A stretch of 64,000 nucleotides of DNA, from contig JAWWNJ010000216.1 of assembly GCA_037176885.1 (NCBI GenBank), positions 1 to 64,000 on the forward strand, in the 5' to 3' direction. The DNA comes from Favolaschia claudopus (taxonomy: Eukaryota; Basidiomycota; Agaricomycetes; Agaricales; Mycenaceae). The position numbers and the translations under genes were made by a program. The notes beneath the pieces were generated by a model. That model ran no database searches. It worked only from the letters and a program-made list of their open reading frames with translations, and had not been told where the DNA came from. This document shows positions 22,999 through 35,165 of this stretch, piece by piece. Each line of letters starts with the position of its first letter. Position 1 is the first letter of the stretch.

Positions 22999-23031
22999 TA
23001 ATCGTTAGTAAAGACTTGTTGTACTTGTTCA

Positions 23032-23106
23032 GGGATAAATCTATTTGGCGCCCCGGGGTGCTGATGTACCCCAGTGTACCCCCGGGTAGTACTATTTGGC
23101 ACCCCC
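23032..23106 (+). repeat. Left terminal inverted repeat of the 6.55-kb element
   Basis: Contains CTATTTGGC(G/A)CCCC twice, near its outer end (23041) and at its inner end (23092-23106), around a central CCCCGGGGTGCTGATGTACC. The right repeat is arranged the same way. Confidence 0.88.
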
Positions 23107-23218
23107 GAGTATTATGTACATTAGTCAGCCGAGCAGGAATATACTTACTGCACACTGTACACTCTGAGGCATCGCACTGGCCGTGGAAGGGGAGGGAAAA
23201 TGAGCAGAATATTATTTA

Positions 23219-25637
23219 CTATTCAATACAAGCAATTTTTCTCCGCTTTCGGGGAGATAATACCATAACTGTTAGATCGCGATCTGCTGAGCGCCGCCGT
23301 TTTTTGGGTGCACAATCCGAGGTCGACTCGTTCTCCTTCTGCGCATCAGAGCCAACATCTACCTTGATTTTTACGACCTTTCGCTCCACGGCCGCCAACA
23401 CCTTTGCACTCAAGCCCTTCTTTTCCTCGCCTTTGGACTTGAGCTTCGCCGTCGCAACAGAGAGAGCATGGCGGCGGTGGTAGAATGTTTGTAATCGAGG
23501 GTCGCCCTTACAATACATGATTCTGTGCCACTGCTCAGCACCGAATAAGATAAAACAAAGAAAACCGACTTACAGATCCCCACCGCGACCCTTAATCCGG
23601 CGCGCGATTCCGCAATAATCAAGCGGCCCAACGGTGAAGTCCTGGGTGTATTTGATGATATATGTGAGGAGCGTTCGCTCCCGGACAGAAGAGTCGCAGA
23701 GGTGAATTGGCGTAGGTTTGGGAATAAGAACAGGAGCCGCCTTCGGTTTCGGCGGCGCCCGCGGCCGCGATTGCCGCTTTTGTTTTCCTGGTTTCCCTCG
23801 TTTCACCGGTGGGGGTGGTGGTGGGGGCGGGGAGACGTTCTCTGTTGGAGGCTTTGGAGGTCGAGCTCGCGGGATCGGTGCCGAGTTGTCGGGGAACGCT
23901 GGGATGACCGACCAGATATCGGATTTGGAGATCCGGTAAAGCTGAGTCAGAGGATGGGATGCCCGGAGAGCGTTCGTGGTCTCGGGAGAATGGAACAAAT
24001 ATGTATATCTGCCCAGATTCAGCCAAGACGCGCTCATCGCGGGCGGAACTAAAAAAGAAAGTCATGAGTATTGATGCGCACAGTAAGGACTTGCGATACT
24101 CACGCGAAAGAGAGGCATAATACCGTGCTAACGGATTTCTGCTCGACATGCACGCCGCAGGCAGACCTGCGCTAGCGCAAAGGTTCGCCCAGTGTTCACC
24201 GCCAAAGATCAAGGAGCCGAGATTGATTTCCTCGCTCTCCAGCGCATGACGAATAAACTCGGGCTCGAACACATCGAACGGCCCGCTGTCATCGCACTGG
24301 CGGATCCAGAGCCACTCCTTAGAGCGCGCTTCAAAAACTCCCTGTTAGCCCCAGCGCAGATTAGCGGAAATGAAGATCGATTGAAACGAGGAAACAGGAC
24401 AGACCTGAAGATCTGAAAGGAGGTCCCGAAAGCGTGCCGTGACATATGAACGATCCTTTCCATGCACATGGAGGCGCTCGCTGTAGAGCAGCCTATCCTT
24501 CTCATCGACGCAGATCACGAAGCCGACAAGGAACCGTTTTACGAGCGGCCTATATGCAGACAATCAGCAAAAGATAAATAAGATCATTCAAAGACAATGG
24601 GCTTACCAGAGCGTGGTGTGCGCCTCCTTTGCGAAGTGGTAGTATGCAGCGCAGAGACGCGCCGTGCGAGACGGCGAGTCAAATACCTCAGCTTCGGTGA
24701 GATTTGGGGCTAAACCTAGAAACAAAAGCCGTAGATAGATCGATCGCAATCGCAAATCGAAGTGGAGAGTTGCTTACCTGCCATATGCCATAACTCGGGC
24801 ATGGTATACACCCCTCCACCCGCGAATATCTCTGTGCTAGTTCGAACGAGAGTCATCGCATTTCCGGAGCGGTTGCTCTGAACGTTGCGACGGTCAGCAA
24901 TCCATTTCACGACGTCTTCCAGGAAGCGGGGGAAGTCGAGATACACATCGGGCTGGCTGGCAAGGGAGGCGCGGTTAGGGGACCAATAGAACTGCACCGT
25001 CATTGTCAGTAACTTAGAAGATGCCCGAGAAATAGAAACGCACCTGGATTAGCAGATCCAGCGTTAAAAAGGCCAAAACATACTCCTTGAATTCAAAAGC
25101 CAGACCGACTTTGAACCCGCGATCGGTGCGATCTACTTTACATACTGCTTCTTCCCAGTCTTTCTTAGCAAAGGCCTGAGCAACAGTGTGCTTCAATAAC
25201 TGCACCTGAATAAAGCCGAATTTGCGAGTTTAGTTATAATATAAGGCTAGCAGCATGTAGTTTCAGCTTACTTGACACCAATGAACCTTGGAGTCTCTAT
25301 CCTGGAACTTGAGGATGACGTTCCGAGGATGAGTCTCCACCCCGACCAATTTCAAGCCATGCTCAATGATTGGGACAAGTGGATCGTTGGGATCTGTGCT
25401 CAGAGCAGGTGGGTACAGTGGTGTTTGGGAGTCAGACGATCCTCGAAGCGCAGTAGAGTCAGAATCCAAGGTGAAGACATGGCCCAAGCTAGCTCTTGAG
25501 CCTTCTGGGTGCGATGAAGATTCTGCCAGAGTGGCATCAGCCCACAGATTTTGGACCACCAGAGACTCAGGAGGAACAGAGTTGAGAAGGAATAAGCATA
25601 GAAGAGCAGAGACCAAAGCCTCAGAGAACTCTGGCAT
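23219..25637 (-). CDS. Unrecognised 670-aa protein of the 6.55-kb element (gene B)
   Basis: Eight exons on the minus strand: 25272-25637, 25044-25205, 24778-24991, 24607-24715, 24405-24549, 24104-24341, 23574-24048, 23219-23522. All seven introns are 51-66 nt with GT-AG ends, and the 2,013-nt CDS stays open. I do not recognise the family. Exon 1 has a short hydrophobic N-terminus (ALLCLFLL) and a Ser/Pro-rich stretch. The middle (about residues 120-400) looks like a folded domain with motifs such as FYWSPNR, PLVKRFLVGFVICVDEKD, SKEWLWIRQCDDSG and FGGEHWANLCASAGLPAACM. A Pro/Lys-rich linker with a run of eight prolines follows, and the C-terminus has two nuclear-localisation-like clusters (PKKRRR, PRKRRK). 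The start lies 325 bp downstream of gene A's stop, same strand. It could hold the missing recombinase or nuclease activity, or be an accessory factor. FunK1-type kinase was considered but not supported. Confidence 0.8.
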
Positions 25638-25961
25638 GGTGCTGTTGGCGGAGTAAACAAGTTCGAGTTCGTGACAGTCACATCACATGACCGTGATGTG
25701 CCCGCACAGTTTGAGTATAAGCAATGTAGGTAGCAATGGCACACAAACCTAGGAAGCCAAAACCTTTCTTTTCATGTATATATTGATTCTGCATGCTTGG
25801 CTTACATTCATTTAACAGCCCAGCCTCTTCTGCTAGTAAGTACTACTTGAAGACTTCAACTTGAAGTTCTCCCAATTTGTTCAATTCACATAGATCTACT
25901 CAACGAATACATCGAATTCGATTGAATGAATCAAGACACAGCCATTCATGTAAGCTAAGCT
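25638..25961 (-). promoter_or_regulatory. Intergenic region upstream of gene B with palindrome
   Basis: This 324-bp gap between gene A's stop and gene B's start should contain the gene B promoter. CACATCAC (25679-25686) and GTGATGTG (25693-25700) form a perfect 8-bp dyad, and a TTATACT motif lies at about 25712-25720, some 75-80 nt upstream of the ATG. The dyad resembles a dimeric protein-binding site; no factor can be named. Confidence 0.35.
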
Positions 25962-28900
25962 TCAGTTTCCTCTGGAAGGCACCCGGCAGCTTGTCCGGTT
26001 GTGTCCAGGCTGAAGACAGTTGGAGCAATGATTCTGTCGACGAGATTGACTTTGTGTCGACGAAGGTTGGCTTCTTGGACCTCCACCTCGAGGCCTCCCC
26101 TCAGTTGCACCTGTCAATCGAGCTGTGAGCGGCCTACCTTTACTTCGCTCCACAACGGGAGGGTCACGGATTCTCTCCCTTCTACTCTCTTCCTCAGTTT
26201 GGTATCTGGGAAACGATGATTCAATCTGACTGCCAGCAAAGTATCATGGTGCAAATTAACTCACTGTATATTGGCTAACTGTTCCCGAAGCTGATCCAAT
26301 TGTTCTTGAGTTTGAACCGAGCCAAGCATCGCCCGAACGTCTGCATGCAAGGCGGTGTACGCTTCTCGTTGGCCAATCGTTCGTGTGATAGGTGGGGGAG
26401 TGACAGCCCTGTTGATGAGTTCTCGAGAAGAAACCGGATTGGAAATAAGGGTGGCAGGTAAGGAAGTGGTGTCGAACTGAATGTTTCGATGAGTGTGCTG
26501 ATTGTATGTTACCACCGGGGTGTTTCTAACATCCAGACTCGAGTTTTGATACCAGCTATAGGATGAAGAGTGAGGATAAGTACAGTGCGGTGCTATATTT
26601 GATTGAGAAGGACAGACCGTCGCCGGACTTGCGAGATATGGAAGGGAAGTCCGGGAATCAATTTTGTTACGCGCGTTGCCGATTTGGCGAGGCTCGAGAC
26701 GGTTCCCGGGAAACTGAACGTTGAGAACCTGCCCAGTTTGTCGACGAGTCAGCGAATCTGGAAGCTGAGCAATAGCAGCTCGCTGTGCCGCAGTTGGTGG
26801 CCGCTGTGCCTGACCGCCGACTGGGATCGTCCGATCGTGATTATGAGTCGCATCGATATGAGAAATTCGCCATTTCCGGGTTGGACCCTTGACCGCCATG
26901 AAAGCCACTCGTGCCTGGCAATTCGTCCTGCCGGACTTGCCACGCCGATGGTCAGAGGGATCGATATCTTGACGATGAGTCTCGACTGCCTCCCGATATG
27001 CATTACACCGCACTACGCGTCTGTCGAACTCCTGACGGTCTTTGTTGCGATGACTCTGTGCCAGGATGAACTTGTAGCCTAGCGCCTCCTGTGCCGCGAA
27101 AACAGCGCTGATACCCGCTTCCACGGTGTTGTATATATTTCCGACTTTTATCGGGCCAAAGCTGAGTACGATCTGACGGGTTTGAGTAGGGGGAGGCGGA
27201 GGGGGAGCGGGGTTGGTCCGAGAAATGAGTGTCAGCGGGGTATCCTCGGTTTTCGCTTCAAATTTAGGGCGGCGGCGGGGAGGGGAAACGAGGTCGATTG
27301 GGGTAGGCTCAGATTTCAGAAGGGGAGGAATGTGTTTGCGCTTCACGCTGGGTCGGAGGGGACTGAACGCGGCGAGTTTGGATGCATTGGGCGCAGCAGC
27401 AGGTGGGGTGCAAAGATCGATGACATCAGGGCTGCATAAATCCACCACTTCAGTCTTCCGCGGGGGCGTTTTGGGAGGTACCGGGGAATCGAAAATAACG
27501 AAAGGTTTTGAAGAAGAGTCGGAAGCAGATGGTGCGCCTGAGATAGCTTCACCAATATCGGGGAACTCTGGGAGGCGGAAGTCCGGCCCAAGCGACATCG
27601 TCGATAATTGATTGATTGGAGGAACATGCACGGTGGCGGGGGAGTTAAATGCAAAGGGAGAGCCAAGCGAGGCGCTGTTTGACAACGATCCAGACCCCGA
27701 CTCAAAGATTGGCGCAGGGAGCGGCATCGCAATGGGAAAAACAGGGGACTGACGGTTGATCGCTGCGAGCCATCCAAAGATGGGGTGATCAGACTGAAAG
27801 TGAGGAGAATCAGGGTCCTTCGTTGCGGGTTTGAGTATAAGACTTGAAGCTTACATTTGGAACAAGCATGTCCAGGTTGAAGTCATTGTACCCCACACCA
27901 GCATGCATAACGGCGAACCCAGGGACCTCGCCAATGGAAGAGCGGGTACAAGGCTGCACCCAGTCCACATATGTCTGCAATCGATACAATGAGTGTGAGT
28001 TTCGATGATATTTGCCTTTCGATAACGCACCGTGGATTTTGTACGAGCAATTAGATGATATAACAGAAGATCCTGTAGACAGGAATCTCGGAACGAAGCC
28101 GAGTTGCTAGCCTGCCAGCATGGAATCCCGAGACCCATCTGCGTCTCGATGAAGTTGGTAGCAGCGATACCACAACTTCCCATTCCAGCGTAGATACTCT
28201 GTAGATCGATCGGGCCAGCTTTGATCGATTTCTGCTGGGGAGGCGGTGCGAAATGCCCGAGTCCAGAGAATGCCCATCGAAAAATGTCGAGGATATCTTC
28301 GGCAGGGGAACGTTGAAGAGAGTCGCCGTGCTCGAAGTCAGCGATAAAGATTTTGCAAATGGCGGAATAATGGTCGGCAGTCCAGGAGATAAAACCAAGT
28401 GAATCGACCCCGCCACTGCGGATGCGTTCCCGCATAGCAATGATCTCTGCACTGTATGGAGCATCCGCTTTGTTCATGAGAGTTCTGCCGTCGTTGAAGA
28501 AGCTGGTGGGGAGGAACAAGAAGGAGGGCTCAGCGTCCTGATGTTGGAAATGGACCGCTCGTCGAAAGTAGAGAAACTCGGCTCGAGCGTTGAGAACGTC
28601 TTCGAGGACCCAACGTTCGTCTAGCAGGGAGCCAAGAGTATACAGAGGAGTCTCCGTAACTTTGAACCCAGCCAAGGGCTCAGCGAAGCGGTTGAGCTTC
28701 AGCTCCGCAATGAGGTTGGGAGAAAGGAGGTTGCTGTCATGAACACGATCCAGAAGTCTCTTCGCAACGAGGAGGTTGTATTCGTGGTTGTTGTAATTGA
28801 CGATAAGACGGAGCTAGGAGTCAGGAGTTGTGAGAACAGAGAAACAGGTTAATTTGTACTTGACTCATCGCACCTTGGAGAAATGGTATCGCAGAATTTG

Positions 28901-29206
28901 TTGTTTTCCAATTTGAAGGCACACAGAGCTCATGCCTTCGTCGTAGAAAGCTTTTTCTAGGATCTCGAAGATGGGACGTAGGTCATGGTAGCAGGGAATC
29001 TCCTCCCCGGCAGCAACAACAATCTCTGCAATTGCAGAGGGAACTGTACGGTCCAAATTCCACTTTGTGACGCTATCCAGAGGCAGCACATGGGGAAGGA
29101 CATCGTTTTGGAATAGACCCTCGACGTCTGCCAGAGTTATTGTGTTAAAAAACTCCGCAGAGAAGCGCGTTTGGTGGTGAGGAGTCGAGTACTCTGCATA
29201 GGACAT
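25962..29206 (-). CDS. Ulp1-type protease + FAR1 zinc finger + CCHC knuckle protein (gene A)
   Basis: Five exons on the minus strand: 28874-29206, 28031-28813, 27855-27974, 26265-27793, 25962-26205. Introns are 56-61 nt, GT-AG, giving an unbroken 1002-aa protein from the ATG at 29206. About residues 158-400 match a Ulp1/C48 cysteine protease, the SUMO/ubiquitin-like-specific fold: H259 (ADHYSA), D275 (HGDSL), Q316, C325 (GSCGIAA). A disordered linker holds VVDLCSPD (528-) and VIDLCTP (536-), typical of SUMO-interacting motifs. About 649-731 is a FAR1/WRKY-GCM1-type finger (C675, C704, H729, H731), followed by the helical LTRRQTGQ...NARNK segment seen after FAR1 in Mutator-like transposases. 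The tail has a KGRPLTARL motif and a CCHC knuckle (C982, C985, H990, C995). The MULE DDE core and SWIM finger expected between these are absent. It probably acts in the nucleus at element ends or on SUMOylated proteins; that role is inference. Confidence 0.85.
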
Positions 29207-29504
29207 GATGGACGACAAGCAAGGAGGGACAGAGCACTCAGAGGCTCAGCCCTCTGTGATTTTCCGCGTGATTTGAATATTTGAAAAAGGTCTGAAGCGA
29301 AATGATGGCAAGATCATGTTGCGAGTCCGAAGCTGGTGAGTTGCACTTAGTTATCCTTGTGATACAGGTATAGAGCTTGAGCGGCCCCTTGGTATATCAT
29401 GTCTCTATAACCACACTAGAGAAATAACAGACCTAGAAAACCTACCAAAGCATACAAGAAGCGCTCGAGACGAATCGCGATGGCATGCTTGGGCAATGAC
29501 GTAA
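29207..29504 (-). promoter_or_regulatory. Upstream region of gene A
   Basis: About 300 bp between the gene A start and the right terminal repeat. An AT-rich CAAATATTCAAAT lies some 65-75 nt upstream of the ATG and could serve as a TATA-like element. No other site can be supported. Confidence 0.3.
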
Positions 29505-29579
29505 GGGGTGCCAAATAGCAATATGTTATTTAGCACCCGGGGTACATCAGCACCCCGGGGTGCCAAATAGCTTTATCCC
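29505..29579 (-). repeat. Right terminal inverted repeat of the 6.55-kb element
   Basis: Reverse complement of the left repeat apart from about 15 differences in the middle. It also carries the GGGGTGCCAAATAG sub-repeat at both its inner and outer ends. Confidence 0.88.
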
Positions 29580-29963
29580 TTGTTCAGTATTCAGTAAGTA
29601 CTTCCGTGCAAAAGAGATAAGACTAATACTTGTATGTTGACACTGGTCAAAGCGAGGGGTACGTAGTAGATTTTTTCATCCAGTTTCCACTGTGTTTTCA
29701 CGTATTTTTCAAGTGACTTCCGGGAGTATTGGAAGGGAATCCAACACAGTGAAAGAGTTTTCATTGGAATATGAGGTGGATATCATTCCCAAACCATGTG
29801 AATTAACACCATGGAATGTCCCACTCACATAGTTGGACCCAGTGAACATATCTCCGTGAAATTCACAACTCCATAGTGGAATTCACAGAGTTTTCCGGTG
29901 AATTTCCCATTGAAACCCTGTGAACCAACTATGGGAAATTCAGGGGGTTATGCGACCACAGTG

Positions 29964-33078: not shown

Positions 33079-33100
33079 ACCAGCCGTAGGGAGGGACGAA

Positions 33101-33702
33101 AAATCGGTCATTCCGAGGCTTTTCTCGGTGCCGAAAACGCGTTTTCCCGGCCGAGGGATTTCCCCTTGGAGAAGGGAAGACAATGACCCACCGTGGGAAT
33201 CTCGACCGTTTTGCCATCACCCTCGGAATGGAGAAGTTCCCGATGTCGAAAAATCGGTCATTCCGAGGCTTTTCTGGGTGCCGAAAACGCGTTTTCCCGG
33301 CCGAGGGATTTCCCCTTGGAGAAGGGAAGACAATGACCCACCGTGGGAATCTCGACCGTTTTGCCATCACCCTCGGAATGGAGAAGTTCCCGATGTCGAA
33401 AAATCGGTCATTCCGAGGCTTTTCTGGGTGCCGAAAACGCGTTTTCCCGGCCGAGGGATTTCCCCTTGGAGAAGGGAAGACAATGACCCACCGTGGGAAT
33501 CTCGACCGTTTTGCCATCACCCTCGGAATGGAGAAGTTCCCGATGTCGGAAAAATCGGTCATTCCGAGGCTTTTCTGGGTGCCGAAAACGCGTTTTCCCG
33601 GCCGAGGGATTTCCCCTTGGAGAAGGGAAGACAATGACCCACCGTGGGAATCTCGACCGTTTTGCCATCACCCTCGGAATGGAGAAGTTCCCGATGTCGA
33701 AT
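33101..33702 (+). repeat. Minisatellite, four 150-bp units
   Basis: Four head-to-tail units of 150, 150, 151 and about 149 bp, each with ATCGGTCATTCCGAGGCTTT, GAAAACGCGTTTTCCCGGCC and a GTTTTGCCATCACCCTCGGA segment. Units are almost identical (one TCGG/TGGG difference in the first, one inserted G in the third junction). Because 150 is a multiple of three, several frames on both strands stay open across the array and produce 50-residue repeat peptides; I do not consider these genes. A single diverged unit lies at 41590-41716. The internal dyad AACGCGTT is palindromic. Confidence 0.95.
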
Positions 33703-34919: not shown

Positions 34920-35165
34920 CCGCTAATAACTGAGTACTAATTGGCTTATGTACCACCAGTAGGGGTGCTCAATTTTTACCTCGTCACGTCTCGTCCCGGA
35001 AATTATTCAATTCCATGATCACTGCGAGAAGTATTTGTCATGAAATTCAAGATCATCGTCAGATTCCTGACGTTTCGTCAGAATACACGTCATGAATTTC
35101 AAGACTGGTTTCATGATGCTCCAAAACTTCTAAAAGTTACAAGGTGTGATACCGCACTCATATTC

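What the first reader, a model, noticed from the sequence alone, without database searches (positions are those of the whole stretch)
23032..29579. Complete two-gene transposon of unclear superfamily
Seen: GGGATAAA...TTTATCCC ends, about 75-bp inverted repeats, perfect 7-bp duplication TTGTTCA, and two intact multi-exon genes on one strand. Known: MULEs carry FAR1-type fingers, and some plant MULEs (Kaonashi) carry Ulp1-like domains, but they usually make 8-11 bp duplications. Inference: neither protein shows a recognisable DDE, tyrosine-recombinase or HUH core, so this may be a new group or a derived MULE whose catalyst is gene B or acts in trans.
Basis: partly seen in the sequence, partly recalled or inferred. 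Interest (0 to 1): 0.92.

Follow-up and report, generated by a model that had tools for sequence, protein, structure and literature searches.

The report
Mushroom transposon carrying a DNA-glycosylase-like gene
This is a Mutator-type jumping gene of a mushroom, here an internally deleted copy that has lost its transposase core, and its second gene encodes a protein predicted to fold like DNA-repair glycosylases, which would likely help the element escape silencing by DNA methylation.

The parts
23024..23032 (.). left copy of the 9-bp target site duplication CTTGTTCAG
   Evidence: one copy at the empty site L129, (which fits 7 or 9 bp); 9 bp by the ends of relatives
23033..23105 (+). left terminal inverted repeat, GGATAAATCTATTTGGC..., imperfect, about 73 bp
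23219..25637 (-). gene A, 8 exons, 670 aa; Fpg/Nei-fold (DNA-glycosylase-like) protein; first residues MPE. The NCBI model P0001 of the same contig lacks the last exon
   Evidence: fold of homologue P0005; selection
25962..29206 (-). gene B, remnant of the MULE transposase gene: N-terminal protease-like part, FAR1, C-terminal tail with CCHC knuckle; catalytic DDE and SWIM-like part deleted
28031..28813 (-). gene B exon 2: most of the putative Ulp1/C48-like protease domain (WTADHYS ... EHGDS ... MGSCGIA); motif only
   Evidence: not supported by Pfam or PDB profile
26834..27085 (-). FAR1 DNA-binding domain (PF03101)
   Evidence: 28.2 bits, cut-off 28.1
26659..26660 (.). deletion point: longer copies carry 1,463-1,476 bp here encoding the MULE DDE domain and a SWIM-like Cys/His motif; among 15 matches of a probe across it only the window copy is continuous
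25986..26027 (-). CCHC zinc-knuckle-like motif (CSNCLQPGHNRTSC)
   Evidence: sequence; by eye
29505..29578 (-). right terminal inverted repeat, ends ...TTTATCC
29579..29587 (.). right copy of the target site duplication CTTGTTCAG
35018..35165 (-). outside the element: related empty site for the L009/L010 insertion of the same family, one copy of AGAATACAC at 35080; unambiguous evidence for a 9-bp duplication in this family

Best explanation
The window holds an internally deleted copy of a Mutator-like transposon (MULE) of Favolaschia claudopus whose longer relatives encode a FAR1/MULE-type transposase and, right behind it, a second protein predicted to have the fold of Fpg/Nei DNA glycosylases, which likely works as an element-encoded base-excision enzyme that counters methylation-based silencing. 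Shown: the ends, the family's 9-bp duplication, the empty sites, the missing 1.46 kb, the DDE domain in longer copies, the gene order transposase-then-A, and purifying selection on gene A. Predicted: the glycosylase fold, from a confident model of a homologue. Inferred: that the N-terminal proline (exposed after Met removal) attacks C1' of a modified or damaged base, with Glu3 helping, and cuts the strand as an AP lyase; that the natural substrate is 5-methylcytosine or its TET-oxidised forms in silenced transposon DNA; that the transposase then binds the hypomethylated TIRs; and that the window copy, without DDE, can move only by transposase supplied by longer copies.
Against: No enzyme assay. 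Lys57, invariant in the 13 Fpg/Nei proteins compared, is Arg in 21 of 24 gene A homologues, and invariant Asn169 is Val in 20 of 27 and Asn in none; these could mean altered chemistry or lost activity. Neither Pfam nor the PDB sequences recognise gene A, and HHalign's own probability for the profile match is only 43% (26% in the local run, 7% for E. coli MutM alone). Nothing computed here shows the substrate, nuclear location or any link to methylation. 21 of 40 DDE loci had no listed gene A hit nearby; many are fragments, and the gene A list was incomplete (150 of 329 candidates scored, not all 187 matches listed). The structure is of the Mycena homologue P0005 (59-62% identical), not of the window protein. 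The fused Mycena models could be annotation errors, though they still show adjacency.
Confidence: 0.5

Rival explanations
1. Gene A is a glycosylase/AP lyase used in transposition or repair itself: it trims or opens DNA at excision gaps or removes damaged bases from TIRs, and has nothing to do with methylation.
For: Fpg/Nei enzymes are bifunctional lyases (established knowledge); gene A is conserved with the transposase and kept by selection.
Against: MULEs elsewhere are known without such a gene, and MULE transposase alone does the DNA cutting (both recalled). A relative sits beside an unrelated integrase-type transposase, which suits a general countermeasure better than a transposase-specific step.
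Confidence: 0.22
2. Gene A is a catalytically dead Fpg/Nei-fold protein that only binds DNA, acting like plant VANC to strip methylation or silencing from its own family.
For: Lys57 and Asn169 replaced; VANC in plant Vandal MULEs works through recognition of short sequence motifs (passages of PMC13317346).
Against: Pro2, Glu3 and Glu6, which have no obvious use in a mere binder, stay constant in an N-terminus whose neighbouring residues 4, 5 and 7 vary.
Confidence: 0.18
3. Gene A is a captured host repair gene, a passenger without a role for the element.
For: MULEs tend to acquire host gene fragments (start of the abstract of PMC6446971 in the listing).
Against: Purifying selection between subfamilies, fixed position in Favolaschia and Mycena, several copies with open exons; one host Fpg-like gene (L132) shows no significant BLAST similarity to it.
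Confidence: 0.05
4. The two-gene element is a new superfamily with a novel catalyst.
For: No DDE core in the window copy; neither my full-length gene A nor the N-terminal 427 aa of gene B matches Pfam.
Against: The DDE domain is present in the longer copies at exactly the window's deletion point.
Confidence: 0.01

Closest known systems
Mutator-like elements, Hop group, sub-group with Basidiomycota members and CCHC/C2H2/SWIM fingers, FAR1 in half (table in PMC6446971, passages seen)
   Same: PF10551 transposase with FAR1, TIRs of tens of bp; the superfamily's 8-11 bp duplication
   Different: Adds an N-terminal protease-like part and a separate glycosylase-like gene; the window copy has lost the DDE core. 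The table gives no duplication length for that sub-group, and I placed the element by features only, no tree was built.
Plant Vandal / Kaonashi (KIU) non-TIR MULEs with VANC and Ulp1
   Same: MULE with an Ulp1-like motif and an accessory gene; VANC is an anti-silencing factor (PMC13317346 passages)
   Different: This element has TIRs; the putative Ulp1 part is fused to the transposase; the accessory protein has an enzyme fold instead of VANC. Similarity of role is inferred only.
TET/JBP-carrying fungal DNA transposons (Kyakuja, Zisupton, Dileera, Plavaka and others)
   Same: Fungal DNA transposons that carry a DNA-base-modifying enzyme, passed between transposon lineages (PMC12730594: abstract, passages, section 4.2)
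   Different: There the enzyme is a dioxygenase; MuDR/MULE is not among the carriers its abstract lists. Here it is a predicted glycosylase, which would act downstream of such oxidation.
Fpg/MutM, Nei and NEIL1-3 DNA glycosylases
   Same: Predicted fold, N-terminal Pro-Glu, H2TH region
   Different: Lys57 to Arg, Asn169 to Val, long insertions, about 12% identity in the structural alignment, encoded by a transposon

Membership tests
Mutator-like element (MULE) | target duplication of 8-11 bp | tested here: met
   9 bp at 5 of 9 paired sites, unambiguous at 3 (L009=L010, L018, L122); window and L124 fit 7 or 9 taken alone
Mutator-like element (MULE) | MULE DDE transposase domain in the family | tested here: met
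   PF10551 above cut-off in L021, L018, L122
Mutator-like element (MULE) | MULE DDE domain in this very copy | tested here: not met
   deleted; the window's contig is absent from the 56 DDE matches and the junction is unique. The copy is a non-autonomous member.
Mutator-like element (MULE) | terminal inverted repeats (some groups lack them) | tested here: met
Mutator-like element (MULE) | SWIM zinc finger behind the DDE domain (common, not universal) | tested here: inconclusive
   CDC...CRH motif seen in the translation, no Pfam hit
Kaonashi-type Ulp1 MULE | Ulp1/C48 protease domain | tested here: inconclusive
   motif by eye only; Pfam none, PDB profile none, model of gene B too poor
Kaonashi-type Ulp1 MULE | belongs to non-TIR MULEs | tested here: not met
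   TIRs present
Fpg/Nei DNA glycosylase | Fpg/Nei fold | tested here: met
Fpg/Nei DNA glycosylase | N-terminal Pro2 and Glu3 | tested here: met
   22 of 24 homologues and the window protein
Fpg/Nei DNA glycosylase | Lys57 (invariant in 13 of 13 compared) | tested here: not met
   Arg in 21 of 24, Lys in 1; position from the hhalign alignment
Fpg/Nei DNA glycosylase | Asn169 of the H2TH loop (invariant in 13 of 13) | tested here: not met
   Val in 20 of 27, no Asn
Fpg/Nei DNA glycosylase | four-cysteine zinc finger or zincless finger | tested here: inconclusive
   CG...C part conserved near residues 532 and 549 after a long insertion; not assigned in the model
Fpg/Nei DNA glycosylase | glycosylase and AP-lyase activity | not testable with these tools
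   needs protein

The most novel reading that the evidence does not exclude
Mushroom transposons, both MULEs and an unrelated integrase-type lineage, carry and exchange their own diverged Fpg/Nei glycosylase that cuts methylated or TET-oxidised cytosine out of DNA: a self-encoded DNA-demethylation tool, and the missing excision step of fungal active demethylation.
Probability: 0.35. Interest if true: 0.93.

Novelty: new variant of a known kind. Interest (0 to 1): 0.78.

Why it matters
[quoted passage not shown] A transposon-encoded Fpg/Nei-fold protein with the catalytic N-terminus kept under selection would be a direct, assayable candidate. It would also add a new type of anti-silencing weapon to the transposon-host conflict. 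As listed, none of the homologues bears a glycosylase name or domain, so one assay would put a function on a whole protein family of mushrooms.

Tried and rejected
7-bp duplication: not kept; it fits this copy and L124 taken alone, but L009=L010, L018 and L122 allow only 9. I first took the empty site L129 as proof of 9 bp; on checking, it fits both lengths. New superfamily: rejected. Gene A as TET/JBP, KDZ or RNase-H protein: considered from memory; not among the Foldseek and VIA-align rows shown, which are all Fpg/Nei-type. Gene A by sequence alone: Pfam up to E 10 on 25 homologues gave scattered, unrelated weak hits, each in one or two members, PDB profile none. Single E. coli MutM against the gene A profile gave only E 0.005, probability 7%, so a 13-member profile was made. 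Gene B structure: pLDDT 46.6, no usable fold match; a CE-clan protease appears only at rank 18, E 5.6, which I do not count. Two of 8 gene B homologues scanned (P0034, P0038) gave only a FAR1 match. Genome-contig scan with MutM returned near-identical MutM, by title nearly all enterobacteria, and was not used further. L021 on contig C116 shares a 504-bp match spanning left flank and TIR at 97.4% and keeps the DDE part, so it may be the allele or a duplicate of the same insertion, but its right end was not found in the next 9.4 kb: left open. dN/dS against L122 and L124 is saturated (dS about 2.8, ratio 0.062) and against L017, L019, L021, L012, L020 uninformative (dS 0.035 or less; L019 gives 1.11 with a poorly aligned last exon, L012 and L020 0.56-0.58). 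Association counts for the integrase-type lineage: the search for PF24764 did not complete, so only 4 of 4 fetched copies are reported.
Full report
What was checked. The window lies on a 283,213-bp contig of a 264.6-Mb genome. An NCBI protein from a contig of that exact length, P0001 of Favolaschia claudopus, is identical to my gene A over its 570 residues, which names the organism.

Ends and target site. Inverted arms lie at 23031-23072 and 29539-29580 (42 nt, 95%), with an inner block at 23087-23105 / 29505-29523. With ends at GGATAAA (23033) and TTTATCC (29578) the window shows a perfect 9-bp duplication, CTTGTTCAG. In this copy the flanking G and C also pair, so 7 bp with one more TIR base fits as well; the same holds for L124. 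In L018 (CCGTTTTGC), L122 (CTATGTATC) and L009=L010 (GTGTATTCT) the neighbouring bases do not pair and only 9 bp fits. I take 9 bp for the family. The joined flanks of the window element match five other places at 99% over 111 bp across the junction; in L129, which I aligned, there is one copy of CTTGTTCAG and one mismatch in 111 bases. That empty site fits both lengths. The window itself holds at 35018-35165 a related empty site for the L009/L010 insertion, with a single AGAATACAC, which fits 9 only. Among nine independent insertion sites with paired ends, five have 9 bp (two of them in the ambiguous form), one has 6 and three have none; 11 of the 22 MULE loci scanned had no pair of ends.

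What is missing. Aligning the window element to 20 fetched loci shows L017, L019, L021 and L018 carrying extra sequence at one point, window 26659|26660: 1,464, 1,463, 1,463 and 1,476 bp. Its translation gives an uninterrupted 282-codon DDE exon in L021 and a SWIM-like Cys/His motif. Pfam names the exon MULE (PF10551: 36.6 bits in L021, 38.0 in L018; 45.3 in the diverged L122; cut-off 27.6). The DDE search of the whole genome lists 56 matches, none in the window's contig. A probe across the junction gave 15 matches and is continuous only in the window, so the deletion is a singleton as far as this search sees. Of 8 gene B homologues scanned, 6 have PF10551 and PF21056, together with a FAR1 match, and 2 only FAR1. 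The window copy is therefore a non-autonomous deletion derivative; that it could move in trans is inferred.

Gene B in the window. FAR1 just passes the Pfam cut-off (28.2 vs 28.1 bits). A C-terminal CCHC knuckle and an N-terminal H...D...C pattern of Ulp1 type are seen by eye (the pattern is recalled). The Ulp1 reading found no support from Pfam, PDB profile or fold search, the last being uninformative because the model was poor. My 1002-aa model reads through a former intron behind the junction; spliced there as in the longer copies it would stop early (my reading).

Active-site bookkeeping. Pro2 and Glu3: 22 of 24 homologues with a residue there; Glu6: 23 of 23. Lys57 corresponds to Arg in 21 of 24; Asn169 to Val in 20 of 27, never Asn (Fpg numbering from alignment A5, and the alignment). 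In Fpg/Nei, Pro2 is the nucleophile and Glu3 the acid (established knowledge). I therefore call gene A Fpg/Nei-fold and probably catalytic, but do not file it as a canonical member.

Is gene A part of the element? It lies behind gene B on the same strand in all nine longer MULE copies compared, which belong to at least three diverged subfamilies (L011, L017, L018, L019, L021; L027, L028; L122, L124). Of 40 DDE loci, which I collapsed by hand from the 56 matches, 19 have a gene A hit within 10 kb; the gene A list was incomplete, so this is a lower bound. Three Mycena venus gene models contain parts of both (P0011, P0036, P0042), and P0025 and P0039 hit in both searches. Exon-wise dN/dS of gene A is 0.099 (L018), 0.104 (L011), 0.079 (L027) and 0.075 (L028) at dS 0.14-0.21. 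The aligned exons are free of stops in L122, L124, L027, L018, L011, L021 and L017; L028, L019, L012 and L020 have one stop each in an aligned segment. For comparison the DDE exon gives 0.034 between L021 and L018.

Exchange between subfamilies. L027 and L028 match the window at 89-97% per 250-bp bin from 23283 to about 25783 (gene A), but 61-75% across gene B, with one bin unmatched and a short TIR match at the end. Synonymous divergence from L027 and L028 is 0.19-0.21 for gene A, but 1.7-3.1 for the Ulp1-like exon and the DDE exon (DDE measured against L021; the high values are near saturation). Their TIR begins GGAAAATTC instead of GGATAAATC. Recombination of a gene A cassette between subfamilies is the simplest reading (inferred).

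A second carrier. More distant gene A relatives (about 42% in one exon) are multi-copy. In L123 such a gene lies beside an ORF with an integrase core (PF24764, E 3e-23); L125, L126 and L127 share both by DNA similarity. The gene begins MPETRE in L123 and L125. So the protein is not tied to one transposase type; the count is 4 of 4 fetched copies, and L125 and L126 are nearly identical.

Mechanism. The genome has 38 TET/JBP matches, 22 over the cut-off, and fungal transposons are known to carry TET/JBP (PMC12730594: abstract, passages, section 4.2). A glycosylase acting on 5mC or its oxidised forms would complete a demethylation route; a 2022 study (PMC8889193, passages) says that no such excision activity had yet been discovered in fungi, though a thymine DNA glycosylase gene was predicted in Coprinopsis cinerea. 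That gene A does this is my inference. Rivals are a role in transposition or repair, or DNA binding only.

Literature. Searches for a transposon-encoded Fpg/Nei glycosylase (titles and starts of abstracts seen) showed none; the library lacks most subscription papers. Host Fpg-like genes exist (3 loci over the H2TH cut-off). One, L132, has an ORF with MPEIAEVERA and keeps GVGN; it shows no significant BLAST similarity to gene A.

Verdict. The accessory gene is the discovery: a new variant of a known kind with a testable, unexpected enzyme prediction.

Noticed in passing
L123:264-3779, L125:1565-6390, L126, L127: A second multi-copy element type carries a gene A relative (MPE start, GPLEYCG motif in L125) about 1 kb behind an rva_4 integrase-core gene; L125 and L126 are 99.96% identical over at least 7.1 kb. 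Ends not found.
   Followed up: partly
window 23283-25783 vs L027, L028: The gene A cassette is nearly shared (dS about 0.2) between MULE subfamilies whose transposase genes and TIRs are far diverged, which suggests cassette exchange.
   Followed up: partly
whole genome: 38 TET/JBP matches, 22 above the Pfam cut-off, several with equal scores, so probably transposon-borne.
   Followed up: no
window 25736-25827: A 92-bp unit between genes A and B is single here but present 2-3 times in L017, L019 and L021; the border of the shared gene A cassette lies next to it.
   Followed up: no
L010:7211-9693: A 2.48-kb deletion derivative with a 9-bp duplication joins the start of gene B to the end of gene A; NCBI protein P0021, from a contig of the same length as C21, has this composition.
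   Followed up: partly
window 33097-33692: Tandem array of about four 145-150-bp units, also matching the locus L011 outside its element.
   Followed up: no
L021 (C116:263632-273631): Shares the window's left flank and insertion point but keeps the DDE part; possible allele or duplicate of the same insertion, right end not found.
   Followed up: partly
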